NCBI RefSeq assembly: GCF_040954645.1
Contig: NC_092806.1
Location: forward strand, 79,952,641 to 80,016,640
Length of the DNA stretch: 64,000 bases
Reading direction: 5' to 3'
DNA from: Diabrotica undecimpunctata
Lineage: Eukaryota; Arthropoda; Insecta; Coleoptera; Chrysomelidae
Positions 1-28,600 of this stretch are shown here, one piece after another. The notes beneath the pieces were generated by a model, which saw only the letters and a program-made list of their open reading frames with translations, searched no databases and had not been told where the DNA came from. Position 1 is the first letter of the stretch; the number at the start of each line of letters is the position of its first letter. The translations under genes were made by a program, and so were the position numbers.

Positions 1-8
1 GGACATAC

Positions 9-376
9 TCGAGCGCGTCAGATATTGATATCATCCATGTCCTACGTATTTTTAAGAATGTATGTATGTTAATCTGATTGTTTCCATGATGGGGGTGGTC
101 GTACGTAAGGGTTGAAAATCAAAAAAAAAAATTTAATCGAGCGCGTCAGATTTTCTGAGGGGATGTTAAGTGAACCTGATAAAAAGCTCTTATATAATAA
201 TCTGACGATTTGGATGTGACGCGAACTCGCGGCCGTTATTAGAATGTGCAAAAAAAATTCGCCATTTTGAAATACTCAAGCGCGTCAGATTAAGATATAT
301 ATGGTTCATCTATAAGCCCTAGATGTTGCTGTCTCATAATCTGACGATTATCTGGGGGGGTTCGCCTAATCTGATA
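9..376. repeat. Left subterminal repeat array
   Basis: The core GAGCGCGTCAGAT recurs at 11-23, 139-151 and, with one change, 278-290, a period of about 128-139 bp. Between the cores sit partial complements AATCTGACGATT (199-210, 338-350) and shorter AATCTGA copies (about 70 and 367). Each period therefore carries the motif in both orientations. Such arrays are usually transposase-binding sites; that role is inferred here. Confidence 0.7.
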
Positions 377-538
377 ATTTAAAGTTTTTTTTTTAATTTT
401 TTTAGATCATTGAACTTAATTAATTGAAAAGCTCAGGAAATAGCATGCAAATAAAAAATCGTATGTTTTTTTTTAAGTACAATACTTGTATTTACAAGAA
501 AATAATTATAAACAATGAAATTTTTTTGAGTATTTTTT

Positions 539-606
539 TTAATTTTCATCTTCATCGGTAGAATCATCTTCTTCTTCTGGCTCGATTTCATCCTCAGATT
601 GCGTAT
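539..606 (-). CDS. Terminal exon of the Academ-like gene (acidic tail)
   Basis: This short last exon encodes about 22 residues rich in Asp and Glu and ends with TAA at 539-541. It was found by splicing: the upstream exon has a GT donor at 686-685 and this exon is preceded by a pyrimidine-rich tract ending in CAG (608-607 are the AG). Joining 687 to 606 keeps the frame and changes the C-terminus from a short read-through into a strongly acidic tail. The 80-bp intron is typical of insect genes. Confidence 0.65.
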
Positions 607-686
607 CTGTAACAAGAAATCATTGAAATACTTACAAATATTTTTTTTTATGAATAACCTGTATAATTATTGGGGAAAAAATATAC
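607..686 (-). other. 80-bp intron in the Academ-like gene
   Basis: The intron runs from GTATAT (686 downward) to TTACAG (ending at 607) on the minus strand. It is AT-rich with a T-rich 3' part. Removal preserves phase between the nuclease exon and the acidic exon. Confidence 0.65.
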
Positions 687-3600
687 CTAATTCTGGAGTA
701 TCCTCAAGAGTATCAGGTGTTATGACTACATCTTCATACGCTTTCGGCAATTGATCACCTGCAAACCAGATCATTTCGAACTTTCCGTCGACTATTTTCC
801 ATCCATAGTCCGTTGGTAAAAGATCAATAATTTTTGCATTATGGGCATTACTCCACATACATGCAATGAATCTTGTGCGTAACACTTGTTGGAGTAACTC
901 CGATTGACAGGGTGGCAAGTTGCACGCATCGTAATTCCGGATATTCAAGGAGAAGGGTTGTGATGTGTCCTTTACCTTGTACGTCTTATTGAAGATGACA
1001 ATCCTGGCTTGATTGACATCGTCTAACTTTTTTAGCCCATAGAAGTGGCAAGTAAAAGACTGTATGACGTTTAAAGAATCCTGCAGATTATACTCCTTTG
1101 ATCCTAAATCCAGAAATGCTTGTTGGAAAGTTTCTGAACTCATCAGAATTTGTAAAGGTTTCTTTTTCCCTCGTCGGTAAAATGCTGGGTTAAAATCGCA
1201 ACCAGTGAACGCATGCAAAGCTGGAAGCGCCTTCGAAATTTTTGGGCCTAATTTATTGTAGAGAGCAGATACGTCGATATATCGGCGTGCATTGCCAACT
1301 CCAATATCCATCCAAACTTCTACTGTTGCTTACAGGTGTTCCATATTCGCCAACATAATGACTACGATATCAGTATCAGATGTTCTGATAGTAATAGTAG
1401 AATCTTCTTTTTGTTGGCAAGCAAGAAATGCTATCTTCGTATCCGCTTCTTCGTGATCAGGGCATGACAACTCATAATTAATGATGCGTGTTACTTTATT
1501 ATCAGTAACAGAATATTCATAACACAAATCATGTATTATGTAAATTACCTTACTACCGATAATCGCTGCCATCTCCTGATCAGCCCAATGATCGATGAAA
1601 AACTTGACAATAGCTTCTTTAAACTTTATATTTTTCAAATCTTTTGTAAAATCTGCTGTTCTTGTTTGTTGAGGACCTGAGATGTGGAATTCCTTGTCAT
1701 CTACACTGCCACGAAGAGAATGCTCATAGTCTTTGATTGAAGGTGTAAAGTAGCGATCAAATACAATAGCAACTCTACTTGCAGTGTTATTGATAAGGCA
1801 TTGCAATATCTTCTTTGATACACCTCCAAAACTACGGGGCATTTCTTTAAAAGTATTTAAAAAAAAGAAGCCATCTACAATTAGAAGGTCAATTTGGGAT
1901 GGCGGTTGCTCCACATCTTCAACTTGTTTCTCTAACTCATGAATTAGTACTGACTTATTAGTCTTGTTTAAAGAACCATCTATATGGCACAGCGATAACG
2001 GGATAGGAGTTATAGGAAAACAAAGTACTTTTTCCAGGTCTATAGACGTGTCAAGAGATAAAGCTAATAACCGACCAAATAAGTCCCGCTGCAATTTAAC
2101 TTCGTGCACTTTTCCACCAATTTTTATTTTTCTTTTCTTCTTGAGATTTGCAAAAGTCAGCACCGTATTTTTTTTTAATGGTTGGTGAAATCTGTCTGAA
2201 TTTAAATTGCATTCCATTATGAATTGATCTCGCAGAAAAGTTCCTCCAGACACTGTCTTTAGCAAACAGTTTGTAATTTCTGGAGGGGCAGCTTGCCCTG
2301 TTGAAATGTTAAACAACTGATCCTTATCAATCGAAAAAGAGAATGGATTAATGGTCTGCAGGACACTGTTTGAAAAAGCTTCAATTTGGATGTGTTGTTT
2401 TTTCATTCTATCTGGGTGTAGATCAGCAGCAATATCATGGTAGTTTCTGTCAAGTCCTGCACGAGTAAGTACATGAGATATGATTCTTGTTCGCGCCCCA
2501 ATTGAATTTGTGATGTTAACGATTCCAGTAAGACGACGAGCAGCATCACCATTTATCTTCTGCTCTAACGGTAAATCCACAGGAATTCGTGAAAAAGGCT
2601 TGATGGTTCTTCTGATTCCAAACGATCCTTTAGCCATTTCAGTTCGGAGGCCTGGATGTGTGTTATCTATGTGTTGTAGTAAATTAAGGTAGTACACTAG
2701 CCATCGACTGTAGTTGGGTTGATTGTAATAGAAGAATAAGCTGTCGATTTTCGCAATGGTATATACGTACAAATCTAAATCTCCAACTCTAATACTTTTA
2801 ACGAATAAGTGGTAAAGATTTACAAAATCGATGTACATTGCGTAAAATTGCGCTGTTTTTCCGTGCTTGCCGTCTAATGTGTCTTCTGCATATTTCTCAT
2901 AAGATTGAATGAGTTGTTGTGTTTCGGTATGCTGAACTTGTGGAGACACGTCTGTATGAGCCAAAAATGAGGTGAGATATTCTAACACTGATTCCCCAAC
3001 TGTCAATTGTTCGTTTTCCAAAAACGCTTCGAAATGTAATTGCTGCAATGCCAATGCCACGAGAGAATGTAACCGTTTACATCTATTGTAATTTTTTCCG
3101 CTAATAAAACCTGAAACTGAACCATTAGCGATCAATTCACACTCAGTCATGATATTGCTCAGTCCACAATCTTCAAAAAAAGTGCCAAGTGCCTTGAAAA
3201 AAGGCATTTCAATATGAAAGGCTCCTAAATGAATAAAAATATTGTCAAATCGTGGAGATTCTTGAGCTTGAATACAATAACTAGTGCGAGCAATAGCTAG
3301 ATCATAGGTGATCTGGATATAGGGAGCTTGACATTCATTTGCAATATCCTGACTCAATTCTAGAGTTTTCAAGACAGTTGAATTGTTGGTGGGAGATTCA
3401 TTTATGGGAGTTAGATATGAAACTTTTTGAATTCGTGAATCGTCTACCAAAATCTTGCTGTGAAATCCAACCCACATTGGGGCGTCCGATATTTTATACT
3501 TATGTAATAACATCCACGTAATGTCCAGCTGTTTCGACATAGTCAAGTTGTCTGGAGCTTTATTAAGCTCTGAGATATCTAGCTGACTCCAGGAGGTAAT

Positions 3601-5000
3601 TTTTAATTTCTTGGTGAATGGATGCATTTCGAAAGTAACTTCTTCAAAAGTCCTGCGTTTTCGGTTTTTTGTTTTTGTGGTAGTAACGGATAATTCCGAA
3701 AAACTACCATGCTCAATCTCTTCGATTGTTGAATTTTCAGGTACACTAGGGCTAGAAGATTCCACAGACACCGGATCCGGATTTTGCACGATATCCTGAA
3801 AAATTATCCCCACCGTATCATGCAGAGTATCTTTACCATTTAGGGTTTCTACGAAGCGGTCGAAATTGTCGAATGCGACACCAGTATTCAAATCCGGGCG
3901 ACGTAGGATATCTTCAGGGCATACGTGAGCACTATTTACCGTTGAAAATGTCAGCTCAGTCTCTAGCTCTTCTAGAGTTGTGTACGAGCAACAATGTCCA
4001 TATTTTGACAGTACGTTAACAACTTTCTTACTGTTACATAGGCTTTTCACTGCCAGACCAAGGGTAATGTGCTTAGATGTTTTAATTTTGTGGGCAGAAG
4101 CTGCGTAAATCAGATCTTGTCCAATGGAAAAAATAGAAAGCTCGTTCTTTTTTTTTTCTATTTTCACGTGCTTTGTTGGATATATGAGAAACATCGCCCC
4201 AAATGAAGGATTTAAAAAAATAAGTAAGAAGCTCTGGCACGTTATCGCACTCTCCCATCATCAAATCTTCAGCTGTACAATTTTCAGGCAATTCTCTTCT
4301 GGCTGAGTTAAGGACTTCTTCGCGAAGTTGTGTTGCAACTGAACGAATTGTTTCTTTTACTGCCATCGTTTTAAATAAATCCTTGTAAGACAAAATAGTG
4401 GCGAAAAATGGAGCAATAAACTTTTTCTTCTCAGCGTAAATAATCTTAATCTTTTTGTCAAATGTTTCCATTAATTTTCTTTCTAAGTGACGGTCTGAGA
4501 ACGAAGAAATAGTAATAGAATCAGACAATAAACTGCTTTGCTGTTCTAACAATTTTTGATATTCTTTTTTTATGTAGTCAAAAAATAAGCATTCATTATT
4601 CTTGACCACTCTTTCTTCTAGCATATCACAAATAATAGTATACGCAGTATTGTAAATCTTTTTTTTTCTTAGAAATTCGCTATTTTCATCCTTATAGATT
4701 TCTCGTAAATATTGATCTTTGCAACATTTATGGTAAGGCATTTTGGAATCATCGGAGAAAGAACTAAGTTTTTCCAACATCGATATATCATTTTGTTCCG
4801 TGGCCGCATTTTTGACATTCTCTATAGTTTTTAATCTACTGATAGCTAAGCGAACTTCACGACCATGATGCCGTTTACGTTGTTTTTCGCAAATGAAGCA
4901 AGTTTGCGATGCTGAATCGTTATGAGCGACAGGCTTATCTGTGTTGAATGAATCATTGAAATCCTCCAAGTCTACTTGAATGTTGCTGTATTCTCCCGCT
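687..5000 (-). pseudogene. Main exon of Academ-like PIN/XPG-like nuclease (one frameshift, one stop)
   Basis: The exon opens after a TTTGCAG acceptor (5001) and encodes a second Cys/His module (CFIC ... YHKCC), a long central region, then a PIN/FEN/XPG-like nuclease core. Its acidic clusters are in the expected order: LLIVDGF (about 1870-1890), VFDRYFTP (about 1750-1775), EEADTKIAF (about 1440-1460), SDTDIVVI (about 1365-1390) and HAFTGCDFNPAF (about 1190-1225). The C-terminus includes LPPCQSELLQQ. The reading frame changes near the A10 run (plus strand T10, 4148-4157). A TAA at 1330-1332 interrupts an otherwise continuous frame; 18 bases later it reaches the MDIGVGNARR block. Apart from these two lesions the roughly 4.3 kb is open. 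The transposase role is inferred from Academ; a nuclease fold is likely from the residues seen. Confidence 0.65.
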
Positions 5001-5667
5001 CTGCAAATTTTTTAACAATAACATAATAAAGCTGAAGATTATATTATGAAATTAAAAGATTGATAAAAGAAATAGATTAGTTCATGTTTTATAATGGTAT
5101 TAATAGTTATGTTGACGCAAGAAATAATGAAGGAACACCCATTAATTACGTCAGCTATTTTTCGATCATTTTAGACCCCTCCCCCCTTAGGTGACATTTA
5201 ATGAGATTTACGCTATAAATTATTTAAACTAATTTTTTTTATTATTCGGGAAAATAACCGTTTCGGTATACTATAGATAATTTATTCAAATTAAATGAAA
5301 TTTAAAGCAAAAACAGGTAAAAATAGTACATTTCTCAATTTTTCACTCAATCCATGGAGACTCATGTACTTTTTCGATTGATATAATTGGACATATATCA
5401 TCTGTTATTTAAAATAATTTTTTCTTTAATATTTGTAATAATTTATATTTTTTTAAGATGACGTCAGATTTTCAATTATCCTCCCCTCGGTGTAAGTGAG
5501 ACTCAATGAGATTCTATTGGACCCCATTTCGAGCTCACATAATTAATGGATGTCCCCTAGGTTTTTTTTTTGAATAATGATTTTTTTGGTCTATAAATTT
5601 AACTAAAAAAAAAATTCAATAACTTTTTTTTTAAATATTTACTACATAAAGTCATACTAAAACTCAC
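5001..5667 (-). other. 667-bp intron in the Academ-like gene
   Basis: A strong donor GTGAGT (from 5667 downward) pairs with an acceptor AAATTTGCAG ending at 5001. Splicing completes a Glu codon and joins the two Cys/His modules in frame. The intron is AT-rich with no ORF of note. Confidence 0.6.
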
Positions 5668-6146
5668 TCATCTGTTGATGTACCAACAGCCTCAGTAGAT
5701 GTGGAATCAACAGTAGCATATGATTTGGAGCACTCTCCAGAAACAGGAACTTGTGACTCAGAACACTCTCCAGGAACAGAAACATGTGACTTGGAGCACT
5801 CTCCAGAAACAGGAGCATGTGATTCTGAGCTATTCCTCTGAACTTCTGATGCATTATCATATTCCACTACACTTTGCTGTTGTTGCTGTTGTAAATACTG
5901 AAAGTCTGGTGGTATTTTTATTGCAGTAAATAATTTGTAGCACTGTGCGTGATAGACTTCATGTAATGAAGATTCTTTCGAAAGTTCAAGATTATCGTAT
6001 CTTGTTCGGGATTTTCTGAAAACCGGTTTGCTTCGACGATATTCTAAAATATTTATACATTTTTGTAATGTGTCTAATGTAAATTTAATTGTTTTTTGCA
6101 AAGTAACTTCACCACAAAATACACACTTTATATTATTATCACTCAT
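5668..6146 (-). CDS. First exon of Academ-like protein, Cys/His module
   Basis: It begins at ATG (6146) and encodes about 160 residues. Residues 8-11 are CVFC, with Cys30 and a YHAQC motif ending at Cys69: a C-x2-C ... C ... H-x2-C arrangement that looks zinc-binding. A Gln run (QQQQQQQ) follows, then an 11-residue repeat built on SGECSES in three to four copies (33-bp units, about 5729-5833). The exon ends at a perfect GTGAGT donor. Without splicing a TGA at 5664-5666 would stop the frame, which supports the intron. This module probably binds DNA or a partner protein; I infer that from position only. Confidence 0.6.
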
Positions 6147-6418
6147 AGTAAATATTTATAAACTTAAATTCACCTTACTTATGTTAAAATCACAAAATGA
6201 GCAAAAACGTTGGAAATACGTTGTAAACAATATCATGCCACAAACGCGTTTGTGTGATCAGCTGTCATGGCGTCATGGCAACAGAAACCAGAGTGGGGAC
6301 GGTATGAGAGATAGAGAAAGAGTGAGAGAGGAATAGAAACGCGGAGAGGGGAATATAGGCATCACGTAGCTGCACGTATTAAACTTTATCGATGAATTTT
6401 TATTACTTCGGCTTGTGG
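6147..6418 (-). other. 5' leader of the Academ-like gene
   Basis: Non-coding stretch between the start codon and the right subterminal repeats. It must hold the promoter if the gene is expressed. I recognise no specific site in it. Confidence 0.35.
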
Positions 6419-6775
6419 AAATCGTCAGATTATATATTTTTTGTAATTCTTCAATTATTCCCTTCAAAATAAAAAAAAATTTAGCCACGCTCGAGAATGT
6501 CGAGATGACGTTTTTTTTTTTACAACTTTGTCGCCCTCCCCCTTCTTTGCGTCACTCTCAAATTGTCAGATTAGTGGAATATACACTCTTTAGCATGTAA
6601 CTAACTCACCCTACCTTAATCTGACGCGCTCGAGAATTTCAGATGATCAATTTTTTTTTACTAATCTGATCCTTTATCCTTGACGGGCGGCCATATATAT
6701 GGGGTTCATATTTGGTGGAAGTACTTAACTGGGTACAAGGATTCTCTCTGTATAATAATCTGCCGCGCTTTAGTA
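6419..6775. repeat. Right subterminal repeat array (inverted)
   Basis: Inverted copies of the left motif occur as CGCTCGAG (6488-6495), AATCTGACGCGCTCGAG (6618-6634) and AATCTGCCGCGCT (6757-6769). Shorter TCGTCAGATT and TGTCAGATT copies lie near 6421 and 6564. Spacing is again about 130-139 bp, mirroring the left array. The last copy probably lies close to the true terminus. Confidence 0.65.
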
Positions 6776-7930
6776 AATCCCGAAATCCCCGCTTGGGCTC
6801 CCCTACTACTAGCAAATTCCTGTTTCACCAACACTTTTACGTCTTCTTACTTAAAATAAATGTTTTGTTTTGCAACAATTTTTTATTTACGCCCAAACCA
6901 TTTCTATAGGGTTCAAGTCAGGATGATATGAGGAAGTTTTAAAAAAACATGTCCACATTCTTGCAGCACTTTGTCAAATTTATATTTAATATGATACGTT
7001 TGTGTCTTTTGATGATTTCATACAATTGCGGTTTTAACATTGACGTTACAAATGGTAAATTTTTTTCTGTCAATCAACACATCATATCCATATTTTTTGA
7101 ATTTTTGGTGGGTGCTTTATTAATTTGTACATTATGGTATGATGTATTATCAGTAACAACAACAGATCCAACAGGCAAATTGGGGATAAACTGTTCTTTC
7201 AACCATTTTTCATAATTTTCTGAATTCATATCATCATGATAATTTCCTGTCTTAGCTCCTGACTTAAAAATCAAAAGGGCATTCTGTATGAAACCCATCT
7301 CCCCACCACCATGTACAATAACTAACCTACTTCCTTTTGAAATGTTTTTGAACAATCCTTTGTCACTGTCATCTGTCCAGCTATTTGGCGTAGTGTGTCT
7401 TACATGTACATAGGTTTCATCAACATATACAATGTACTTACCTTCGCTTCGGTAATATTTAATTTTGTCCAAATATTTAATGCGTAGAGCACGAATATCA
7501 TTCCGTTCAATTAGTAAACGTCGATTATCTTTCTTTTTCTTCCGTTTAAATCCCAAATCTTTCACAATTCTGTAGAGAACTCACACTTCCAGTCCACTCG
7601 TACACATCTTCAAGCCTTTTCTGCAAAAGCTTCAATGATACACGACAACGTTCAGTCTCATTAAAACGAAGAATGGTATTTCTAATTAACTGTTTGTCAT
7701 ACTCCCTCAAGTCTGTCACGGTTGCTTTCCTTTTAACAAGTGTTGTAGCTGGAAATTTTAGTCTATTATTTTACTCTGCGTTTGTTAACATATTCGCTTG
7801 TTGAATGATCCTTTCCACTGTACGTAAAGATACTCCAGTAGCTTCACTCACACGTTTAATATTGTTTAATACTGGTTCGATTATCTTCAGGAAATAGTAT
7901 TTGCATATATTTAAATACATTGTAAACTAT
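6776..7930 (-). pseudogene. Tc1/mariner-superfamily transposase, decayed
   Basis: The longest open part (7074-7565) encodes a DDE core: YVDETYVHVRH (first Asp), a LVIVHGGGEMGF strand, and VVVTDNTSYHN (second Asp). Upstream on the minus strand, in other frames, are a helix-turn-helix (RVSEATGVSLRTVERII, about 7800-7870) and a linker region with a stop (about 7570-7790). Downstream, a frame-shifted DLNPIEMVW block near 6895-6920 gives the third acidic residue. At least three frame breaks make it a relic. The same DDE family, with its GFV strand and DNAPYH block, occurs again at 31667-35420 in an intron-containing copy. Terminal repeats were not identified. Confidence 0.75.
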
Positions 7931-16186: not shown

Positions 16187-16690
16187 CGGGAGAACGAGAG
16201 CCATACCAAAGCCGAGAGCCACACTAGAGCCGAGAGCAGTACCAAAGCCGAGAGCCACACTAGAGCCGAGAGCAGTACCAAAGCCGAGAGCCACACTAGA
16301 GCCGAGAGCAGTACCAAAGCCGAGAGCCACACTAGAGCCGAGAGCAGTACCAAAGCCGAGAGCCATACTAGAGCCGAGAGCAGTACCAAAGCCGAGAGCC
16401 ACACTAGAGCCGAGAGCAGTACCAAAGCCGAGAGCCACACTAGAGCCGAGAGCAGTACCAAAGCCGAGAGCCACACTAGAGCCGAGAGCAGTACCAAAGC
16501 CGAGAGCCATACTAGAGCCGAGAGCAGTACCAAAGCCGAGAGCCACACTAGAGCCGAGAGCAGTACCAAAGCCGAGAGCCATACTAGAGCCGAGGCAGTA
16601 CCAAAGCCGAGAGCCTTACTAGAGCCAAGAGCAGTACCAAAGCCGAGAGCCATACTAGTGCCGAGAGCAGTACCAAAGCCGAGAGCCATA
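16187..16690 (+). repeat. 36-bp minisatellite in the BEL leader
   Basis: About 14 tandem copies of a 36-bp unit containing GAGAGCAGTACCAAAGCC and GAGAGCCACACTAGAGCC. The two halves of the unit resemble each other, so the ancestral unit may be about 18 bp. Because 36 is a multiple of three, long frames stay open on both strands; these are by-products, not genes. The array lies between the 5' LTR and gag. Confidence 0.9.
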
Positions 16691-17342
16691 CTAGAGCCGC
16701 AGAGCAGCCAAAGGACAGGACCGATTGCAGAACCCACCAGAAGCGAGGGATCCTCAACGTCTAAGAACACAAAAAACCGTAAGTTTTTGAATAATTACAA
16801 AATCTTCCAACTTTTACAATCTTACAATTTAACAAGTTTTTTTTTTATTACAATTTAACAATTTAGAACAACAATCTCCACTCTATCAATCGTATAATAA
16901 TGTACTTTAGAATGTATACCATTTAAATAATACAGAGAATTGATAAAACAAAAAATAAACGTCATTCACAACTATAACTTACTAAACAGTAATTTTGTAT
17001 GACAATTTGAAAAAAGAAACGTTCATACATATAGCTTGCTTTTAATTCAATTAAATACTTTATTTCGAAAAATTAAAATAATTACGTAGCAAATAATTTC
17101 ATTTATTTTTATAACAGTATATATATGTATATATATCATTATAAGAGTGTGTGGATTACATCTTGACCTACCTCAGTACAAAGAATAGCACAGCAGGCAA
17201 GGTCAAACTCATATTTCGCTAAATTGCACATTCCGATAGAAAAGAAAGTGTTATAATACAGGTATACTTATTTAATAAATAACGTACATTTCGTATTGTC
17301 TAATATATTTACCGCTGAATGTAAAAATTTATAAGAATAATT
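16691..17342 (+). other. BEL leader between minisatellite and gag
   Basis: AT-rich untranslated region. CCGTAAGTTT at about 16777-16786 is a near-perfect splice donor, which could serve a leader intron or a subgenomic env RNA. No acceptor was confirmed. Confidence 0.45.
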
Positions 17343-19227
17343 ATGGAAAGCATATACGTTAAGCAAGCGGAATTAGGAACAGAAATAACGAAACTCGTTT
17401 CAAATACAAAAAAGGATTCCCAATCTCGGAAAAATCAACAATACATCCGGGATAGACAGGAAAAATTAGAAGAATATTGGGCAAAATTTTTAAATAACCA
17501 CGAAAAGCTGCTAGAAGGGGGTATAACGAAAGAAAAATATTTTGAAACAAAATACTATGATCAGGTATTTAAGATATACATTGAGGGGAAAACCCTGTTG
17601 GAAGAATATGGAAGGGTGCTGAAAAGAGGAAAAGCACCGAAAGTAAAGGAGATACAGATAAGAAAACAAAGAATCGAGGAATTATTACGGCCAGAAAATG
17701 AACAAGACTTGCAGGAGGATGAAGAATTACAGTCAGAGTTAAGAGAATACATGGAAAAGGTGAATACACTAATGATTGAAGCAGCAGTAAATGAGGAACT
17801 AGACGCTACAGATAATGGAGAAGTAGAGAGAATAAATCATCTAAAGAGGAAAGTCCGGGAAGTTTTAAAGAAAATAAGGCCAGGAATGCAACGGCCAGAA
17901 AGCACACAGAGGAGGGACGGTGTGACATTGCCGCAGGTAAAAATCCCTGTGTATGAAGGCAGATATGAAACGTGGAGAACTTTCCACGATCTGTTTACTA
18001 AAGTAATACATGAAAACGACCAGTTATCAAACGCAGAAAAAATGCAGTACCTAAAAACTCAAGTAAGAGGGGAAGCCAACAGAATGATACAACACTTAAA
18101 CATATCCGAGGCCAACTACGAAGTGGCCTGGAACATGCTAAAAGATAGGTATGAGAACCCAAGGATGATATTGTTTAAATTAATAGACAGGATGCTACTA
18201 GCGCAGGAAGTAAAGGAATCTTCTGCTAGAGCATTGAAATCACTACATGACACCTTCCACGAAAGTCTGGAAGCCATAGGAGGGTTAGGAACAGACACGG
18301 AAGCGTGGAGCCCATTGATAGCCCGAATTATCATAACGAAATGGGACAATGAAACTAGGAGGCTGTACGAAAACCACATTGGAGACAGTAGAGAGATACC
18401 GACGTACAAATCGACACAAACATTCTTACAGCGAAGATTTCAGACACTGGAACTGCTGGAGTCAGAAAAAAGACAAGAGAAGCAAGGAGGATCTCTTAGG
18501 AAACCAAGAACACATTGCGTGATATGCAACGGAGATCACGGAGTACCGAACTGCAGAGAATTTCAGGAACTCAATGTAAGAGACCGGAACAGGATGATAA
18601 AAGAAAAAGGATTGTGTACAAACTGCCTAGCACATAAAAAAGAAAAACAATGTTATTCACAATATAGGTGCAGACACTGTGGCGGAGACCACCACCATAT
18701 GTTGCATTATGAAAAAGGAAACACAAGCAACAAAAGAAACTCCAATGGAACGAACGGAGAACAAACACAAGAAAGAAATGGAAGAGATTCAAACAATAGA
18801 AGAAACGGGTACCAAGCTGATAGGTACAGAGGAGGAAATAATAATCCATACAACGCCAGAGAACAAAATAACGGAAGGCGAGAAAATACACAAGATACCA
18901 ATGGGCCTAGGAATAGCAACGACCAACAAAGAGGGCAGAATTCAGTAAACTGTGCAAGCCATAAGGAAAGTAAAGCATTACTAGCGACAGCTGTGGTACG
19001 CATAAGAGATGCGAAAGGAGATTCACACATAATGAGAGCACTAATCGACCAAGGGTCACAATGCGCATTTATAACGGAACAAGCTGCGACGACGCTAGGA
19101 ACAACAAGGAAGCCCATACAGGCGACCATATCCGGGATAGGCTCGTCAGGAGAAAAAACAGCCAACTGGAGTATGAAACTTATAATCGAAACTCATTACG
19201 AAAGTGACTTCGAGATGGACATAGAAG
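17343..19227 (+). CDS. gag: BEL/Pao Gag-protease, truncated by PLE insertion
   Basis: Starts at ATG 17343 (MESIYVKQAELG). A coiled-coil N-terminus is followed by a DUF1759-type Gag core (VKIPVYEGRYETWRTF at about residues 200-215). Next comes a Cys/His zinc-knuckle region (CVICNGDHGVPNC ... CTNCL ... CRHCGGDHHHMLH, residues about 390-460) and an aspartic-protease active site (ALIDQGSQCAF, near residue 570). The frame is intact to 19227, where a PLE is inserted. The open frame then runs into the PLE and stops at 19247. The original frame resumes at 24888 after the duplicated target GGACATAGAAG. Gag packages RNA and forms particles, and the protease cuts the polyprotein, by family knowledge. 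Confidence 0.9.
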
Positions 19228-20005
19228 AAAATCCACAAGGAAAATAATTCCTGTAGCTGGCTGTATACCACGTATAACAAAAGAGGTTATTCTTTGTATG
19301 TGGGTATATTTTATTTTATAAAAACCCTTAAAAGGGCAACATTACAAGCACGAACGTTTTCGGAACAACTGTTCCATCATCAGGTTTAAAATGCCTAAAA
19401 TAAGTATAAACCATTTAATTACAGTAAACGTGGTTTAAAATTTTGACTAAGGTTAAAAACAATAAAATGGTTATACTTACAGGTTAACATGCCTGAGCCA
19501 CCAAAATATTTGGGTAAAAACCCTTTAAATTGAAAAAAGTTACCAAAGATTGTACATGATGTTTATAATATTATGTGATGTTTAATATTTTAATTAGATT
19601 TTACTTCAGGTAACATACACCCATGCTTAAGTGAGTTCCAGTGTCCGGAGAGTAAACCTCTTCAAACGGACTACGGTTGGCAACTGATTGATGAAATACT
19701 CATGAGCGGTGTCAAAAACAAAATGTCAGTGAACCATGAAACAGTGTTAGTTAAACATTATGTTACTACAGCCAAAAGATTAAAAAACTTTGATGATGTT
19801 AAAATGATAACAGTAATCCAGGTGTTGGGATTTAAAAATTTTTCTATAATTATTTAATATTGGATGTAAAAGATGTAAATTACTGGTGTTGTTGAAGGTC
19901 ATGTTTAAGAGGATGACGTATGCATTAGGCAGCTTATGTTACTCTTTATCGTATGGAGTGTGGTCTAAAAGGTGTAATTTGTGAAGAATTAGCTGAAATA
20001 TATGG
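19228..20005 (-). repeat. PLE pLTR, inverted left copy
   Basis: Reverse complement of the 3' pLTR, extended at its outer edge by about 40 bp including the complement of GTATACAGCCAGCTACAGGA. It forms a long perfect-looking hairpin with the adjacent direct copy. Confidence 0.9.
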
Positions 20006-20738
20006 ATAAAGAGTAACATACGATAAAGAGTAACATAAGCTGCCTAATGCATACGTCATCCTCTTAAACATGACCTTCAACAACACCAGTAATTTACATC
20101 TTTTACATCCAATATTAAATAATTATAGAAAAATTTTTAAATCCCAACACCTGGATTACTGTTATCATTTTAACATCATCAAAGTTTTTTAATCTTTTGG
20201 CTGTAGTAACATAATGTTTAACTAACACTGTTTCATGGTTCACTGACATTTTGTTTTTGACACCGCTCATGAGTATTTCATCAATCAGTTGCCAACCGTA
20301 GTCCGTTTGAAGAGGTTTACTCTCCGGACACTGGAACTCACTTAAGCATGGGTGTATGTTACCTGAAGTAAAATCTAATTAAAATATTAAACATCACATA
20401 ATATTATAAACATCATGTACAATCTTTGGTAACTTTTTTCAATTTAAAGGGTTTTTACCCAAATATTTTGGTGGCTCAGGCATGTTAACCTGTAAGTATA
20501 ACCATTTTATTGTTTTTAACCTTAGTCAAAATTTTAAACCACGTTTGCTGTAATTAAATGGTTTATACTTATTTTAGGCATTTTAAACCTGATGATGGAA
20601 CAGTTGTTCCGAAAACGTTCGTGCTTGTAATGTTGCCCTTTTAAGGGTTTTTATAAAATAAAATATACCCACATACAAAGAATAACCTCTTTTGTTATAC
20701 GTGGTATACAGCCAGCTACAGGAATTATTTTCCTTGTG
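20006..20738 (+). repeat. PLE pLTR, direct 5' copy
   Basis: Direct copy running up to the RT ORF. It ends in the extension GTATACAGCCAGCTACAGGA and TTTTCCTTGTGGA. Its junction with the inverted arm carries a short duplication, ATAAAGAGTAACATA. Confidence 0.9.
20580..20640 (+). ncRNA. Hammerhead-ribozyme-like motif in 5' pLTR
   Basis: CTGATGA (20589-20595), a hairpin GGAAC-AGTT-GTTCC, then GAAA (20611-20614) reproduce the conserved core order of a hammerhead ribozyme. Such ribozymes are established in Penelope pLTRs. Stem III and the cleavage site were not resolved by eye, and the base after CTGATGA (T) does not pair cleanly with the C before GAAA. Confidence 0.45.
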
Positions 20739-20757
20739 GATTTTGTTAATTGACGGT

Positions 20758-23289
20758 ATGGTCAACTTGGCTCTTCAATACATGCGCTTAGCCACTAAAA
20801 GATGTACTCTCAAGTTGGATATATGGTTCATCTCACAATGTATCAACTACAAAGTTTTTCCAACCTTTTGTAGAATTAAAACACCAGGAAATGTTCCAAC
20901 CACCTTAAGGAACACCTTTCAACTAAAAATCTTAAAGAAGGAGATTTGCAACCATTATGGAAAACTTAACTTTTTAAACTGTAAACTTAAGGTAACATAT
21001 GACTTTTTACTTGAATCCATAGGTTTTGATAACTTAAGTAACCTTCTGAATGATGTTCAGGACAAAATGGACAGTGTAACCTCTATTAAATTCAGTAAAC
21101 TTAAATCTAAACTCAATAAACTCATTAATAATGCATCTAATTCACAAAATAATAACAGTAACAAGAACAAAACTAAATTTTCTAATTTTCAATTTCACCC
21201 TAGGCTCAAAAATCTATCCTCCGTAACTTTTGATAAAAATGAAATCGACTTATTGAATCTAGGTCTCAAATACTCAATTCCGAGGAAGGTTTCTGAAAAG
21301 GACCTTCAGAGTCTCTCCATTGAGCTAGATGTTATCATACAGAATCTCTCAGTCCCTCTAAACCAAAAAACTTCAATTAGAAACTCCTGCTACAAAACCA
21401 TCTTCAAATTCAAAAACAAAAATTTTCCATCAACTTCTACTTCTTTCAATATCTCTACTACCAACACTACATCTAACACATCCCACAACTCATCATCCAT
21501 CAACCTACCTTCTACTTCTCAAAATTACTCATTCAACGTTCCTTTTCCACAATTTTCATACAAAAAACAGAAAGACCAACTCCATATCCTCAAGTCTATT
21601 CAAAACAAAATTAAATCCCATAATTTAATCATTAGTAAAGCAGACAAAGGCAATTGTCTAGTCATTCTTGATCAGAAGTTATATAACGACAAGGTCACTA
21701 CATTTCTTTCAGATAACAATTTCACTCCACTCCCCGAAGATCCAACAAAAAAGTTCATTAATAAAATCAAAGCTACCAATAAACTTTTCACAGAATTTCT
21801 GTCAGAACATGATGCTCCATATTATAAAATACCTAGCAACCCATTAACACCCAGATTGTACGGTTTACCTAAGATACACAAAGAGGGAATTCCCATTCGT
21901 CCTGTTGTTAGTTTTATAAACACTCCAGTTTCTATCCTGTCAAAATTCATATTGAATCTCATTAACAATATGACGAACTTCACCCCTCGCTTTTCAGTCA
22001 AAAATACAATTCATCTAGTCAACAATCTCCAACAAATAAATCTTCATCCCAACATCACAATGCTTTCATTTGATGTCAGCAATTTGTTTACTTCAGTCCC
22101 CAAACAAGAAACTATTAATCTGGTCCACTCTCTTCTACGAGCAAATTCTATCACTATGTCTACCACTAACTCAATTATTCAATTATTACAAACTTGTCTA
22201 GCTCAAGACTTTTTTGTTTTCAATAGTAAATTTTACAGACAACCTGATGGCTTAGCCATGGGTAGTTGCCTTTCCCCTCTCCTAGCTGATATATTTATGG
22301 ATCACTTAGAATCCACACACATTATGAAAAATCCTGAAATTCTTCATTGGTTTCGATATGTTGATGACTGTTTAGTCTTCATATCAGGTAACTCGAATTC
22401 AGCTGATCTATTACTCTCCAAAATAAATCAAATCCACCCAAACATAAAGTTCACCATGGAACTAGAGTCGTCTCAATCAATTAATTTCCTCGACCTTACT
22501 ATTACCAGATTAAACGACCATTTCGATTTCAGTATCTATAGGAAACCCACACAAACCGACCATATCATACCTTTATCTTCCAACCACCCAATGTCACATA
22601 AATATGCAGCCTTCCATAGTTATATTCACCGCCTAGAAACAATCCCACTATCACAATCTAACTACCAAACAGAACTCAATATTCTAAAACAAATAGCATC
22701 CAACAATGGGTATGACCCCAACCTCATTAACAAACTTATTAATAAGAGACAACTCAAACTATTGAGAGAGGCTGCGTTCCCCAGAGACTTGACCATTAAA
22801 CCTCATTATGCTTCCTTACCTTACCTTCAAGAACGTCTTTCTGGAGATACCAGATATATCTTAAAAAGATCTGTTGAGAATACCCACATTTCTTTTAAGG
22901 TCCTGAACAATCTAGGACAATGTTTAACCAATTCAAAAGATTGCATCAACTACATGGATCGTAGTGGTGTTTACAAATTACAGTGCTCTGATTGTGATGC
23001 TACATATATAGGTAGAACCTGTAGATCACTAACTTCCCGTTCCCAAGAACACACTAAAAAAGAGAACACTTCCACCTTCTCACAACATCTTGCACAACAT
23101 AAACATACCCTCAACATACCAGAAGACGTCTCTTTGTTACATAATATACCCCAAAAAAATTTTCTAAAATTAGATCTATATGAAGACTTGGAAATAGTCA
23201 AGGAAAAGCAAAGAAGCCCCAACTGCGTTAATCGCCATGTATCTTTCAACCGTGACTTTCAACCCTTACACCGACAACTCTTCTCATAA
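20758..23289 (+). CDS. Penelope reverse transcriptase with GIY-YIG endonuclease
   Basis: I choose ATG 20758, just after the pLTR; the open frame extends upstream to 20692 within the pLTR. The 843-residue protein has a low-complexity Asn/Ser/Thr-rich N-terminal third. RT blocks follow: SKADKGNCLVI, PRLYGLPKIHK, FDVSNLFTSV (Asp near residue 439), DGLAMGSCLSPLLADIFM and YVDDCLVF (residues about 534-541). A C-terminal GIY-YIG nuclease starts at GVYKLQC with TYIGRTCRSL (residues about 737-755) and two Cys in CSDC. All key residues are present and there is no stop or frameshift. PLEs prime reverse transcription at the nick made by GIY-YIG, by family knowledge. Confidence 0.95.
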   Translation: MVNLALQYMRLATKRCTLKLDIWFISQCINYKVFPTFCRIKTPGNVPTTLRNTFQLKILKKEICNHYGKLNFLNCKLKVTYDFLLESIGFDNLSNLLNDVQDKMDSVTSIKFSKLKSKLNKLINNASNSQNNNSNKNKTKFSNFQFHPRLKNLSSVTFDKNEIDLLNLGLKYSIPRKVSEKDLQSLSIELDVIIQNLSVPLNQKTSIRNSCYKTIFKFKNKNFPSTSTSFNISTTNTTSNTSHNSSSINLPSTSQNYSFNVPFPQFSYKKQKDQLHILKSIQNKIKSHNLIISKADKGNCLVILDQKLYNDKVTTFLSDNNFTPLPEDPTKKFINKIKATNKLFTEFLSEHDAPYYKIPSNPLTPRLYGLPKIHKEGIPIRPVVSFINTPVSILSKFILNLINNMTNFTPRFSVKNTIHLVNNLQQINLHPNITMLSFDVSNLFTSVPKQETINLVHSLLRANSITMSTTNSIIQLLQTCLAQDFFVFNSKFYRQPDGLAMGSCLSPLLADIFMDHLESTHIMKNPEILHWFRYVDDCLVFISGNSNSADLLLSKINQIHPNIKFTMELESSQSINFLDLTITRLNDHFDFSIYRKPTQTDHIIPLSSNHPMSHKYAAFHSYIHRLETIPLSQSNYQTELNILKQIASNNGYDPNLINKLINKRQLKLLREAAFPRDLTIKPHYASLPYLQERLSGDTRYILKRSVENTHISFKVLNNLGQCLTNSKDCINYMDRSGVYKLQCSDCDATYIGRTCRSLTSRSQEHTKKENTSTFSQHLAQHKHTLNIPEDVSLLHNIPQKNFLKLDLYEDLEIVKEKQRSPNCVNRHVSFNRDFQPLHRQLFS

Positions 23290-24149
23290 CCCACACTTCT
23301 CAAACTTACCCCATCTTCTTCATCTGTCCTTCCTCTATAAATGTCAACACCTTAATCCTTCTCAACAATTGTTGTTTTTTTAAAACAATCATTCTCTCTA
23401 CACTACTGTCACAACACTCCCTCCAAAAGAATTTTTCAGCCCCCTATTGTTAACATCATATCTTTTATACCTCACTATTTCATTATTTTACAATCTTCAT
23501 GTTTTCACCATATTCCTGTCCATTCTTTTTTCTTTTGCTAGTTCTCAGTCTTTTCATATATCTTCCATCCACCCATTAGTTCTAAACTCAGTAAACATTT
23601 AAACACAATCCAGCAATTCATCAGAATTCACTTTCTCCCACTTTACCTAAACCTTTAATCAACCATTGCTCCCCCCTCTCTTAGTCAACAACTTAGTACA
23701 CCATACTCACAAATAAAATTTTAGGCTTTTATGTATCGGATTTTAATATAACCAAAATATATTTTGTTCAGGGTGCTAGATGCTTTAAGCATGAAGGACC
23801 TCTATCATCTCTAATTTTGTTGATTAACTCATTCATTTCCCTTTAACCCACTCTCCTTTATTCTTTAGTCATTCCATTTACTTTTATTCCTGCCAGGTCT
23901 CTGAGGATCTCAGTCTTTCCAAAAAAAATTTTTTTAAATTTAATCACATATATTATAACTTTAATTCCTTCAGCCGGAAGATTTTCAATCATTTTTTCTC
24001 AATCTATTGGACTCACTTATATTAAAAAAATTTTTTACGATACTAGCAGTATTAAACAATTTCATCCACTAAAAAAGTCTTACATTAGCTACAAATATAT
24101 ATTACTTATTTTTCCTTGTCCTAGATGTTAGCAACATAAAAGGACATTT
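23290..24149 (+). other. PLE 3' untranslated region
   Basis: T- and C-rich non-coding sequence between the ORF stop and the 3' pLTR. No gene or structured motif recognised. Confidence 0.6.
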
Positions 24150-24876
24150 CCATATATTTCAGCTAATTCTTCACAAATTACACCTTTTAGACCACACTCC
24201 ATACGATAAAGAGTAACATAAGCTGCCTAATGCATACGTCATCCTCTTAAACATGACCTTCAACAACACCAGTAATTTACATCTTTTACATCCAATATTA
24301 AATAATTATAGAAACATTTTTAAATCCCAACACCTGGATTACTGTTATCATTTTAACATCATCAAAGTTTTTTAATCTTTTGGCTGTAGTAACATAATGT
24401 TTAACTAACACTGTTTCATGGTTCACTGACATTTTGTTTTTGACACCGCTCATGAGTATTTCATCAATCAGTTGCCAACCGTAGTCCGTTTGAAGAGGTT
24501 TACTCTCCGGACACTGGAACTCACTTAAGCATGGGTGTATGTTACCTGAAGTAAAATCTAATTAAAATATTAAACATCACATAATATTATAAACATCATG
24601 TACAATCTTTGGTAACTTTTTTCAATTTAAAGGGTTTTTACCCAAATATTTTGGTGGCTCAGGCATGTTAACCTGTAAGTATAACCATTTTATTGTTTTT
24701 AACCTTAGTCAAAATTTTAAACCACCTTTGCTGTAATTAAATGGTTTATACTTATTTTAGGCATTTTAAACCTGATGATGGAACAGTTGTTCCGAAAACG
24801 TTCGTGCTTGTAATGTTGCCCTTTTAAGGGTTTTTATAAAATAAAATATACCCACATACAAAGAATAACCTCTTTT
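24150..24876 (+). repeat. PLE 3' pLTR with hammerhead-like motif
   Basis: Near-identical to 20006-20705 but lacking the 40-bp terminal extension; it ends at CCTCTTTT before the duplicated target. CTGATGA (24772-24778) and GAAA (24794-24797) again frame a 5-bp hairpin. Confidence 0.9.
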
Positions 24877-24887
24877 GGACATAGAAG

Positions 24888-26580
24888 CACTAGTACTACC
24901 GAAGATAAGGAATTTACCGGAACAGGATATAATTCTACCGGACTATAACGAGAAAAATGCAATACTGGCAGATCCAAGATATTACAAGGTAGGGAAGATA
25001 GACTTACTACTAGGAGTAAAAGAATACAGTTACATATTGACAGAAGGAATGCACAGAATAAGTAATGGACTCCTGAGTCAAAACACCAAACTAGGATGGA
25101 TAGTTTCGGGAATAGCACGAGAAAGGGAGAATATAAAAGCAGAAGTATGCTGTATGATATCAAGACAAGAAATGGACGTACAAATAAAGAACTTCTGGGA
25201 ATTAGAAGAAGTAAATCAGGACACAAGTTTCTCAGTGGAAGAACAAGATTGTGAAGAACTGTATCGACAGACTGTAAAAAGGAATGAAGAAGGGAGATAC
25301 GAAGTAAAAATTCCGTTTAGGGAAGACGTCGCAAAGTTAGGAGAATCTAAACAGCAAGCATTCGCCAGATTGATGCAACTAGAAAGGAAGTTTGCAAAAG
25401 ACAAACAGTTAGAAGCGAATTACAGACAATTCATGGAAGATTATGAAAACCAAGGTCATATGGAAATAGCAGAAAACCAGGGAGATGGGTACTACTTACC
25501 TCATCATCCAGTGAGAAAAGAGGACAGTACTACAACGAAAATAAGAGCCGTGTTTGATGCATCAAGCAAAAGCTCATCGGCAGTAAGCCTGAATGATATT
25601 ATGCACACAGGGCCGAAATTACAATAAGATTTGACAAATATACTATTACGATGGAGATCCAATAAGGTAGCATACTCAGCGGATCTGGAAAAAATGTTTA
25701 GACAAATCAGAATGGCAGAAGAAGACCAAAAATATTAAACAATTTTGTGGAGAAAGGACACAAAGGACCACATACAAGAGTATAACTTAACGACGGTGAC
25801 ATACGGCACGGCCGCAGCACCCTTTTTAGCGTTAAGAACAATACCACAATTACAAGAAGACGAAGGAGCGAGGTACCCGTTGGCATCGAAAATTGTAAAA
25901 GAAACATGTATGTAGACGATATACTAGGAGGAGCTGAGACAGTGCAGGAAGCAGAAACAGCCCAAAAGGAATTAATACAACTGTTCAGAAAAGGAGGTTT
26001 CATTCTTAGAAAATGGTTGAGCAACGAAGAAAAAATAATGGAGAACGTACCGGAGGATATGAGGAACGTAGACTCCAAGGCAGTCAAACAAGAAGAAGTA
26101 CGGAAAACGTTAGGAATTCACTGGTCACCTAAAGAGGATATAATCACATTCAAAATAGGGATAACGACGGCAAAGAAAATAACGAAAAGACACGTACTGT
26201 CAGAAGTAGCAAAACTATACGACCCACTGGGATGGATAGCACCTGTAGTAATTCAGGCGAAAATGTTCATACAGGAATTATGGGAGCAAAAGACCAGTTG
26301 GGATAAAGAATTAACTAGCAACCAACAAAACAGGTGGAATACATACCAGGCGCAATTAGTAAATCTGGAGAAAATAACATTGCCCAGGTGGAACAACTTA
26401 AGCAAGATAAACAGAGTAGAACTACATGGATTTGCAGATGCGTCTATGAAAGGATATGGAGCGGTAATCTACTCAAGGGTATTAGGCCCAGAAATTACCG
26501 AGGCTCGAGCTGTGTGCCGCGGTACTACTAGCAAATTTAATGAAGAAAACCCTACAAGCATTGAACAGGGAAAACATTGA
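24888..26580 (+). pseudogene. pol: BEL/Pao pol: linker, RT and RNase H (broken)
   Basis: The gag-protease frame resumes after the PLE and runs to TAA at 25625-25627, within the RT (NDIMHTGPKLQ, the conserved BEL TGP-L block). A second stop lies at about 25735 after EEDQKY. A frame change near 25905 precedes MYVDDILGG, which holds the catalytic Asp pair. The RNase H start ELHGFADASMKGYGAVIY lies near 26418-26470. At about 26485 the frame changes again with an apparent deletion before a PRLELCAA block. RT and RNase H would copy the RNA genome; this copy cannot make the full protein. Confidence 0.85.
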
Positions 26581-28600
26581 GGTATATGCATGGTCGGACT
26601 CAACGATAACCCTGGCTTGGATAAGGGGATCATCAAAAAGGTGGAAAATGTTCGTCGCCAACAGGGTAGAGGAAATAAGAGGCGTTATAGGACCGAAAAA
26701 TTGGCATAAGGTAGATACAAAGGAAAATCCAGCGGACATCCTCTCACGTGGAAGTACCGCATCAGAATTATTAGAAGCAGAGCTATGGTGGAAGGGACCA
26801 ACTTGGCTGACTAGTAACAAAACTTTAACGCAGGAATCAGAAGAAATACCAGAGAAAAATGAGGAGGAAGTCAAAACGAAAATAACGGTGCACACGACAA
26901 CGATAAAGGAGGACATATGCGAGAGATTCTCAAATTTAGAAAGAATGAGAAGAGTACTTTCATATTGTAGGAGATTTGCAGACAAATGCAGAAAAAAGAA
27001 AGACAATGGACAAAGTCAGCTTACAGTCCAAGAATTAGAGGAAACGCTATTAAAGGTGATAAAGCACACACAGCACGCCTACTTCAAACAAGAAATAAAT
27101 AAGCTGGAGAAGAAACAGCAATTAGACAAGAAAAATAAATTAGCGTCATTGGTAGCATTCCTGGATAGACAAGGAATTCTAAGAGTCACCGGAAGACTGA
27201 GACACACGAATCTAAAGTACGGAGAAAAACATCCGATAATTTTGCCAAAGGATAGTGCATTAACAAAGTTACTTATAACAGATAGTCACGCAAGAAATCT
27301 ACATAGCGGATTACAACAAACACTACAGTACATAAAAAGGAAATACTGGATAATCAACGGCAGAAGAACCGTGAAAGATCATCTAGCAAAATGTTTAAGG
27401 TGCAGGAGGTATAAAAGCCAAGCAGCACAACAATTAATGGGAGATCTACCGAAAGACAGAGTGAACCCGAGTCATCCCTTTACTAACACAGGGATAGATT
27501 ATGCCGGGCCAATAAAAATAAGTACCACGAGAGGCAGAGGACAGAGGAGCTATAAGGGCTACATCTCAGTATTTGTGTGTCTGTCAACGAAGGCAGTACA
27601 CCTTGAGGTAGTAAGCGAGATGTCTACGGATGCATTCATCGCAGCGTTCAAGAGATTTACGGCACGAAGAGGACAGTGCAACAACGTATACAGCGATAAC
27701 GGAACCACATTCGTAGGAACAGCAAATTTGTTGAAAAAAGAAAATCAAAAAATAGATGACGAGATAAAACAAGGATTACTGGCACTAGGTACCCAGTGGC
27801 ATGTCATACCTGCATATGCACCACATTTCGGAGGATTATGGGAGATCGCAGTGCGAATAATGAAATATCACTTGAAAAGAATCATCGGGGAAACAGTTCT
27901 AACATATGAAGAATTGAGTACGGTGCTGGCACAAATAGAAGCATGTATGAACTCGAGACCATTATGTGGGTCATCAGAAGACCCTGAAGGGAAAATAGCC
28001 CTGACACCAGCTCACTTCCTTATAGGGAGAGAAATTATATCACCAAATCGGGAAGAAGAGCTTACGACTTATTTGAAGATGCCGACGAGGTGGAGATTAG
28101 TGGAGAAAATAAAAAGAGACTTCTGGAAAATTTGGAAACAGGAATACCTGCACCAATTACAACAGAGAAATAGATGGCATAAGGCGCACCCTAACATAAA
28201 AGAAGAAGAAATAGTTATAATTAAAGAAGAGGATACACCTCCAGGCAGATGGCCATTAGCAAGGGTAACAGAAACACACCCTGGAGCGGAGGGATTAACC
28301 AGAGTAGTAACAGTGAGAAAGGCAAACGGGAAACTGACTAAAAGACCCATACATAAGCTAATACGACTGGAAGAAGAGAAACAGGAAAAGCCGAAGAAGG
28401 CAGCAGCACTAAGATGGAAGAAAATACTAGTAGCTATAATGTTTTTAACGATGTTAAAACCCATAAAGGCAGAACCGTATAAAATATATAATCCGGTACC
28501 AGGATTTTTCACAGAAGACCTTGGAGAGGTCGTCATAGACCGGGGAACATTTCGAATAAAGGTGTTACTCGAAAAAGGAAGAACTCGAACAGAGCACTAA
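26540..28600 (+). CDS. pol: BEL/Pao RNase H end, integrase and Env N-terminus
   Basis: One long open frame. It begins in RNase H (VYAWSDSTITLAWIRG; DTKENPADILSRG) and continues with an integrase HHCC-type finger (HARNLHSG ... CLRCRRYK). The integrase core follows: GIDYAGPI (first Asp, about 27490), YSDNGTTFVG (second Asp, about 27690) and FGGLWEIAVR (Glu, about 27830). A DUF5641-type tail (PGRWPLARVTETHPG) comes next. Near 28420-28470 a hydrophobic stretch ending in KPIKAEP looks like a signal peptide, so the start of an envelope protein is fused in the same frame. It ends at TAA 28598-28600, which interrupts the envelope region rather than ending pol. The start at 26540 is simply the first start-like codon after the upstream frame break. 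Confidence 0.88.
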   Translation: MKKTLQALNRENIEVYAWSDSTITLAWIRGSSKRWKMFVANRVEEIRGVIGPKNWHKVDTKENPADILSRGSTASELLEAELWWKGPTWLTSNKTLTQESEEIPEKNEEEVKTKITVHTTTIKEDICERFSNLERMRRVLSYCRRFADKCRKKKDNGQSQLTVQELEETLLKVIKHTQHAYFKQEINKLEKKQQLDKKNKLASLVAFLDRQGILRVTGRLRHTNLKYGEKHPIILPKDSALTKLLITDSHARNLHSGLQQTLQYIKRKYWIINGRRTVKDHLAKCLRCRRYKSQAAQQLMGDLPKDRVNPSHPFTNTGIDYAGPIKISTTRGRGQRSYKGYISVFVCLSTKAVHLEVVSEMSTDAFIAAFKRFTARRGQCNNVYSDNGTTFVGTANLLKKENQKIDDEIKQGLLALGTQWHVIPAYAPHFGGLWEIAVRIMKYHLKRIIGETVLTYEELSTVLAQIEACMNSRPLCGSSEDPEGKIALTPAHFLIGREIISPNREEELTTYLKMPTRWRLVEKIKRDFWKIWKQEYLHQLQQRNRWHKAHPNIKEEEIVIIKEEDTPPGRWPLARVTETHPGAEGLTRVVTVRKANGKLTKRPIHKLIRLEEEKQEKPKKAAALRWKKILVAIMFLTMLKPIKAEPYKIYNPVPGFFTEDLGEVVIDRGTFRIKVLLEKGRTRTEH

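What the first reader, a model, noticed from the sequence alone, without database searches (positions are those of the whole stretch)
1..6775. Candidate Academ-type transposon with multi-copy inverted subterminal repeats
A spliced gene for a PIN/XPG-like nuclease with two Cys/His modules lies between mirrored arrays of one motif, three copies per side at about 130-bp spacing. Academ is known for XPG-like nucleases; two separate N-terminal finger modules and such arrays are features I have not seen described together. The system could be functionally close to intact, with only one frame change and one stop.
Basis: partly seen in the sequence, partly recalled or inferred. Interest (0 to 1): 0.75.

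Follow-up and report, generated by a model that had tools for sequence, protein, structure and literature searches.

The report
Recently active Academ-type insect DNA transposon
This is a recently active cut-and-paste jumping gene, very probably a new member of the known Academ group, whose single protein joins a transposase to a DNA-repair-type flap nuclease between mirrored arrays of likely binding sites; near-identical copies in the genome make its mechanism testable.

Summary
Window 1-6808 is all but the first 170 bp of a 6,978-bp DNA transposon. Its first kilobase matches 21 places at 99-100% and one at 68%; 20 copies were fetched. The ends are inverted repeats (TAGTAGGGGAGCCCA); a 3-bp target duplication flanks 17 of 18 two-ended copies, not the window copy. 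Joined flanks of one copy match empty sites at 40 of 40 scored places. The arrays are composite: a roughly 139-bp unit pairs CGTCAGATT with its inverse about 59 bp inward, mirrored at both ends. A second family, 45% identical in protein, shares the 3-bp duplication (6 of 6) and a similar pitch. Copies differ by 0.46%, star-like: one recent burst. Tested features fit AcademX; no Academ reference sequence could be compared. Likely mechanism: DDE-catalysed cut-and-paste, with the nuclease processing the other strand (inferred). New member of a known kind.

The parts
1..6808 (.). Academ-type DNA transposon, window copy; the first 170 bp of the element lie before the window (L009:1431-1600)
   Evidence: Boundaries where near-identical copies stop matching each other
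6794..6808 (-). Right terminal inverted repeat, 15 bp perfect (TAGTAGGGGAGCCCA read inwards); a further shared TCGGGATTTACT makes an imperfect 37-bp repeat
   Evidence: left partner at L009:1431-1445
6..25 (+). Subterminal motif A, left unit 1
   Evidence: 18 of 20 to TACTCGAGCGCGTCAGATTA; best internal match 12 of 20
65..86 (+). Subterminal motif B (inverse of A core), left unit 1, weak
   Evidence: 15 of 22, equal to the best internal match; in register, 59 bp after motif A
134..153 (+). Subterminal motif A, left unit 2
   Evidence: 18 of 20
193..214 (+). Subterminal motif B, left unit 2
   Evidence: Reference copy of the scan; exact ATCTGAC
273..292 (+). Subterminal motif A, left unit 3
   Evidence: 19 of 20
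332..353 (+). Subterminal motif B, left unit 3
   Evidence: 16 of 22; exact ATCTGAC
6756..6775 (-). Subterminal motif A, right, outermost (34 bp from the right end)
   Evidence: 17 of 20
6617..6636 (-). Subterminal motif A, right unit 2
   Evidence: 19 of 20
6557..6578 (-). Subterminal motif B, right unit 2
   Evidence: 16 of 22; exact ATCTGAC
6478..6497 (-). Subterminal motif A, right unit 3, degenerate
   Evidence: 13 of 20, in register but within shuffle range alone
6416..6437 (-). Subterminal motif B, right unit 3
   Evidence: 16 of 22; exact ATCTGAC
5668..6146 (-). Exon 1 (ATG to inferred GTGAGT donor)
   Evidence: Open frame; tblastn of Diabrotica homologue P0005 residues 18-140; splice site read from the sequence, inferred
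687..5000 (-). Exon 2, main coding exon; in this copy broken by one frame change and one TAA and shortened by 30 bp
   Evidence: homologues align along it; splice sites inferred
539..606 (-). Exon 3, short acidic C-terminus
   Evidence: Reading; the C-terminus of P0003 has a similar DTQ...DEIE...DDE tail; inferred
5940..6125 (-). Zinc-like module 1, CxxC...HxxC
   Evidence: Sequence; same pattern in P0005 and family 2
4721..4900 (-). Zinc-like module 2, CxxC...HxxC
   Evidence: Sequence; same pattern in P0005 and family 2
2419..3906 (-). Predicted RNase H-like DDE transposase domain with helical insertion; putative triad D at 3859-3861, D at 3301-3303, E at 2563-2565
   Evidence: Model m09c350e7d32e pLDDT 86, pTM 0.86; VIA-align rows 1-13 are all DDE transposases; kept in 63, 66 and 64 of 66 rows; Foldseek alone not significant
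814..1959 (-). FEN1/EXO1/XPG-type nuclease domain

Best explanation
A recently active cut-and-paste DNA transposon of the Academ superfamily, nuclease-bearing (AcademX-like) lineage. Its one gene, probably of three exons, makes a protein of about 1,600 residues. The two N-terminal Cys/His modules (inferred) bind the repeated inverted CGTCAGATT pairs of the subterminal units and bring the two ends together; the RNase H-like DDE domain (fold predicted) cuts the element out and joins its 3' ends to target DNA with a 3-bp stagger (3-bp duplication shown); the C-terminal FEN/EXO1/XPG-like nuclease (fold predicted) most likely cuts or trims the other, 5'-ended strand or flaps at the ends or at the target gap (inferred). 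Incomplete repair of excision gaps (inferred) would give the many private internal deletions.
For: 20 fetched copies with a common left end, 18 with a common right end; 3-bp duplication in 17 of 18, against a mean of 2.9 and maximum of 9 when flanks are shuffled; 40 of 40 scored empty-site matches at 97-98% for one copy; FEN/EXO1/XPG fold with conserved acidic residues; DDE-type fold and triad; family 2 with the same plan and 3-bp duplications in 6 of 6; star-like variation, 259 private against 7 shared minor alleles in 17 copies; 9 of 19 copies with an internal gap of 54 bp or more relative to L014, all with different breakpoints; Academ features in passages of PMC10045372, PMC5199201 and PMC9587614. 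Circumstantial: Academ is reported from Lepidoptera and the wasp Microplitis (PMC5704228 passage), and here a Microplitis relative, on a more distant branch, is 97.8% identical over 411 residues to one of the moth Scirpophaga.
Confidence: 0.85

Rival explanations
1. A separate, undescribed superfamily of DDE transposons with its own fused FEN-like nuclease, parallel to Academ rather than within it.
For: No Academ reference was compared; Pfam gives only weak DUF6589 similarity, one of 7 homologues scanned passing its cut-off; the TAG...CTA termini could not be checked against published Academ termini.
Against: Nuclease, DDE-type fold, 3-bp duplication, length and host range agree with what the passages seen say of Academ.
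Confidence: 0.1
2. The nuclease domain itself is the transposase (a FEN/PIN-driven element) and the middle domain only binds DNA.
For: The nuclease's acidic residues are kept in 61-65 of 66 rows and it is the only domain with a significant Foldseek match.
Against: The middle domain keeps an invariant D266 and near-invariant D80 and E512 at canonical places of an RNase H fold, and its first 13 VIA rows are DDE transposases; a 3-bp duplication fits staggered DDE strand transfer.
Confidence: 0.04
3. A decayed, inactive repeat whose arrays are chance or mere tandem-repeat relics.
For: The window copy is broken and many copies carry deletions.
Against: Copies are 0.46% apart with star-like variation; 8 of the 9 exact GTCAGAT words of the element lie in the arrays; array spacing is reached by 0 of 400 shuffles per end at offsets 136-142, a range chosen after the spacing was seen; L014 reads uninterrupted through exons 1 and 2 although its right terminus is missing.
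Confidence: 0.01

Closest known systems
AcademX lineage of the Academ superfamily (Kojima 2020, not seen; quoted in PMC10045372)
   Same: DDE-type transposase plus nuclease, 3-bp target duplication, single long protein, insect hosts
   Different: Composite 139-bp-pitch subterminal units with inverted pairs: no description seen (searches, mostly listings); TAG...CTA termini not checked against published ones
AcademH lineage
   Same: Same superfamily if membership holds
   Different: AcademH has a helicase and 9-10-bp duplications (PMC10045372 passage); here a nuclease and 3 bp
P, hAT, Transib and MULE-like transposases
   Same: RNase H-like core with a helical insertion; a role of subterminal repeats is described for the hAT-type Kat1 (abstract start in listing)
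   Different: 3-bp rather than longer duplications (recalled); C-terminal FEN-like nuclease; no significant match in the PDB sequence search
Tn7 TnsA+TnsB (recalled)
   Same: Would work like it if the second nuclease cuts the 5'-ended strands
   Different: TnsA is a separate restriction-endonuclease-like protein, not a fused FEN domain

Membership tests
Academ superfamily, AcademX lineage | 3- or 4-bp target-site duplication (PMC10045372, PMC5199201) | tested here: met
   Exactly 3 bp in 17 of 18 family-1 and 6 of 6 family-2 copies; empty sites for one copy
Academ superfamily, AcademX lineage | Nuclease (PMC10045372; XPG-like, recalled) instead of helicase | tested here: met
Academ superfamily | DDD/E transposase (PMC9587614) | tested here: met
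   Predicted fold and conserved D80, D266, E512; prediction only, Foldseek alone not significant
Academ superfamily | Sequence kinship of the transposase core to named Academ elements | not testable with these tools
   No Academ reference sequence available; paper not held
Academ superfamily | Terminal inverted repeats of the published Academ type | not tested
   Termini found (TAGTAGGGGAGCCCA, TAGAGTAAGATCCCA) but no published Academ termini were seen
AcademH lineage | 9-10-bp duplications (with a helicase) | tested here: not met
   3-bp duplications

The most novel reading that the evidence does not exclude
The fused FEN-like nuclease is the second-strand cutter of a DDE transposon, a Tn7-TnsA-like division of labour inside one eukaryotic protein, and the 139-bp-pitch arrays of inverted half-sites, a pitch kept between two families that share little terminal sequence, are a fixed-geometry docking platform for a large transposase multimer.
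Probability: 0.3. Interest if true: 0.65.

Novelty: new member of a known kind. Interest (0 to 1): 0.42.

Why it matters
What the XPG-like nuclease does in Academ transposition is, as far as I know (recalled), untested. Here is a family with defined ends, duplications, empty sites, a set of near-identical copies from one recent burst and a copy whose exons 1 and 2 read open, so the question can be put to an ordinary excision assay. The matched array geometry in two diverged families gives a concrete prediction for transposase binding, and near-identities between relatives in different orders point to horizontal spread among arthropods.

Tried and rejected
Pfam on the window's protein pieces: nothing above cut-off. 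PDB sequence search with the 66-row profile: best E 0.84. Foldseek with the transposase model: best E 0.46. Viral contigs: 6 pattern matches, no relative. DUF6589 as an identity: one of 7 homologues scanned passes the cut-off (28.4 against 27 bits), four more are listed below it and two not at all; no held paper has the term. Homology of the two Cys/His modules to each other by pairwise alignment: no support, the score lies below the shuffle mean, so I claim only a shared pattern. Array statistics against me: over all offsets 60-320 the best window score is reached by 0 of 200 shuffles (family 1 left), 8 of 200 (family 1 right) and 3 of 200 (family 2 left); the narrow 136-142 range, with 0 of 400 each, was chosen after the spacing had been seen. 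Motif B copies score 15-16 of 22 (the reference copy aside) against a best internal match of 15, and family-2 units 19-21 of 26 against a best internal 18, so these rest on register and on the exact core words. The count of terminal-only or short non-autonomous copies could not be made: the genome search machine did not answer.

Paper evidence: passages only of PMC10045372, PMC10799480, PMC9587614, PMC12730594, PMC5753468, PMC5704228, PMC5791352, PMC10294476, PMC5199201 and PMC3627910; other papers in searches were seen as listings with abstract starts. Kojima 2020 (AcademH) and Zhang 2016 (Academ transfer) were not seen.
Full report
WHAT WAS CHECKED. The motif GAGCGCGTCAGAT is present five times with up to two mismatches, mirrored at the two sides of a minus-strand gene, against 0.36 expected by chance. 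The gene shows three large minus-strand frames (4082-5011, 1330-4257, 667-1329) and an upstream 163-residue frame.

ENDS AND COPIES. The window lies in a 1.74-Gb genome (contig C4); the host was not identified. Its first 1,000 bases match 22 places: 20 over the whole length at 99-100% (one of them the window itself), one over 5-981 at 99%, one over 115-398 at 68%. I fetched 20 of these 22 with flanks. All 20 share the left boundary 170 bp before the window; 18 of 20 keep the right terminus at the place of window 6808, L014 and L027 do not. The window copy is 6,978 bp. The termini are inverted repeats: 15 bp perfect, TAGTAGGGGAGCCCA, plus a shared TCGGGATTTACT at 26-37. In 17 of the 18 two-ended copies the last 3 bases before equal the first 3 after the element; 4 bases match in none; shuffled flanks give a mean of 2.9 and a maximum of 9. 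The exception is the window copy (TCT before, CTA after), perhaps by mutation or recombination. For copy L019, which sits in another repeat, the joined flanks with one duplication removed match 40 of 40 scored places (618 candidates) at 97-98%, 37 of them over all 220 bases: empty sites. This test was made for one copy only.

AGE. Among 17 copies with both ends (L017, rearranged, left out; L014 and L027 lack the right end) the mean pairwise difference is 0.46% (0.26-0.68%); 259 minor variants are private and 7 shared: a star, so one recent burst. Relative to L014, 9 of 19 copies have at least one internal gap of 54 bp or more, all with different breakpoints, some with a few bases of overlap or filler (L017 has two large ones); the window copy has its own 30-bp gap. 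This resembles the incomplete gap repair known for P elements (recalled); inferred. L014 has an open exon 1 frame and an uninterrupted 1,457-residue exon 2 frame, but no right terminus; L012 is open too but 28 residues shorter.

Two CxxC...HxxC modules lie before the DDE part (5940-6125 and 4721-4900). Of 58 listed relatives of 1,300 residues or more, 16 have two by a simple pattern, 28 one and 14 none; gene models may lack the first exon. Family 2 has two.

ARRAYS. Scanning both ends of the window copy: motif A (about TACTCGAGCGCGTCAGATTA) starts at 34, 176, 304 and 443 from the left end and at 34, 173 and 312 from the right end. Motif B, containing AATCTGACG, the inverse of CGTCAGATT, follows 59, 59 and 59 bp after the inner three left copies and 58 and 60 bp after the inner two right copies. 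The outermost left and innermost right A copies match at only 13 of 20 positions; B copies other than the reference score 15-16 of 22, hardly above the best internal match (15). The exact word GTCAGAT, either strand, is found 9 times in the element, 8 of them in these units. The pattern holds in the other copies: all five exact left words are in register in 18 of 20 copies (L018 and L026 lack one each), the three right ones in 17 of the 18 copies with a right end. Scores at offsets 136-142 are reached by 0 of 400 shuffles at each of three ends tested, but that range was chosen after seeing the spacing; over all offsets 60-320 the counts are 0, 8 and 3 of 200. In the first 620 bp, variants inside these motifs across the 20 copies are singletons.

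A SECOND FAMILY. A search of the same genome with P0003 found eight further main places at 43-47% identity (30 of 3,010 candidates scored). Six of the eight were fetched; all six are one family with roughly 450-bp inverted repeats 91-97% alike, TAGAGTAAGATCCC... ends (TACAGT in one) and exact 3-bp duplications in 6 of 6. Its protein (L029) is 45% identical to the window's over 1,135 columns and has both modules and the DDE-region and nuclease motifs. Its ends hold a different unit at 24, 178 and 317 and GTCAGAC at 239 and 377, so one 139-bp step (and one of 154) and a 60-bp inner offset, symmetric at both ends. A shared pitch with little shared terminal sequence suggests a constraint from the protein; two families are few, so this is a lead.

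SPREAD. Among 37 named homologues (of 120 listed), pairs from different orders reach 97.8% over 411 residues (moth Scirpophaga, wasp Microplitis) and 84% over 549 (beetle Diabrotica, spider Trichonephila); the window protein is 90% identical over 419 to a partial one of the butterfly Pararge, but its own host's order is unknown. A quick tree joins different orders in several well-supported groups. This fits horizontal transfer; contamination of single records was not excluded. A review passage says that Academ was reported from Lepidoptera and the wasps Cotesia and Microplitis (PMC5704228).

WHAT IT IS. Passages give Academ a DDD/E transposase (PMC9587614), 3-bp duplications (PMC5199201), and in the AcademX lineage 3-4 bp with a nuclease against 9-10 bp with a helicase in AcademH (PMC10045372). 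The features that could be tested agree with AcademX; kinship to a named sequence could not be tested. I file it as very probably AcademX-like.

HOW IT PROBABLY WORKS. Shown: defined ends, 3-bp duplication, empty sites, recent multiplication, arrays. Predicted: DDE-type and FEN/EXO1-like domains. Inferred: the modules bind the inverted pairs; the DDE domain cuts and joins 3' ends; the nuclease processes the other strand or flaps. The last step is the open question of interest.

NOVELTY. A search for Academ with 'subterminal' listed three papers; the one Academ passage of one of them was read (PMC3627910: a helicase in Academ, nothing on arrays), the other two were seen as listings only. The kind is known; the family and the array geometry are, as far as these limited searches go, undescribed.

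Noticed in passing
L029-L034 (own genome): Second Academ-type family with 450-bp inverted repeats; L032 and L033 share one internal deletion while L034 has others.
   Followed up: partly
window 17325-30244: BEL/Pao-type retrotransposon pieces (DUF1759, Pao peptidase, integrase) with an 867-residue reverse-transcriptase frame at 20686-23289 within the stretch. Described only.
   Followed up: no
window 47472-50653: Helitron pieces on the minus strand (Helitron_like_N, PIF1 helicase).
   Followed up: no
window 16195-16707: 36-bp tandem repeat, 14 copies, 96% matches, open in several frames on both strands.
   Followed up: no
window 7074-7580: DDE_3-like transposase remnant (E 0.039, below cut-off) about 270 bp beyond the element's right end.
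   Followed up: no
window 5731-5822: 33-bp in-frame tandem repeat inside exon 1, coding a repeated 11-residue linker.
   Followed up: no
P0049 (Brenthis ino): Gene model joining BED and hAT dimerisation domains to this transposase; nested insertion or annotation fusion not told apart.
   Followed up: no
window 9462, 53884, 55815, 57161: Four TA/AT dinucleotide arrays of 36 to 41.5 units.
   Followed up: no
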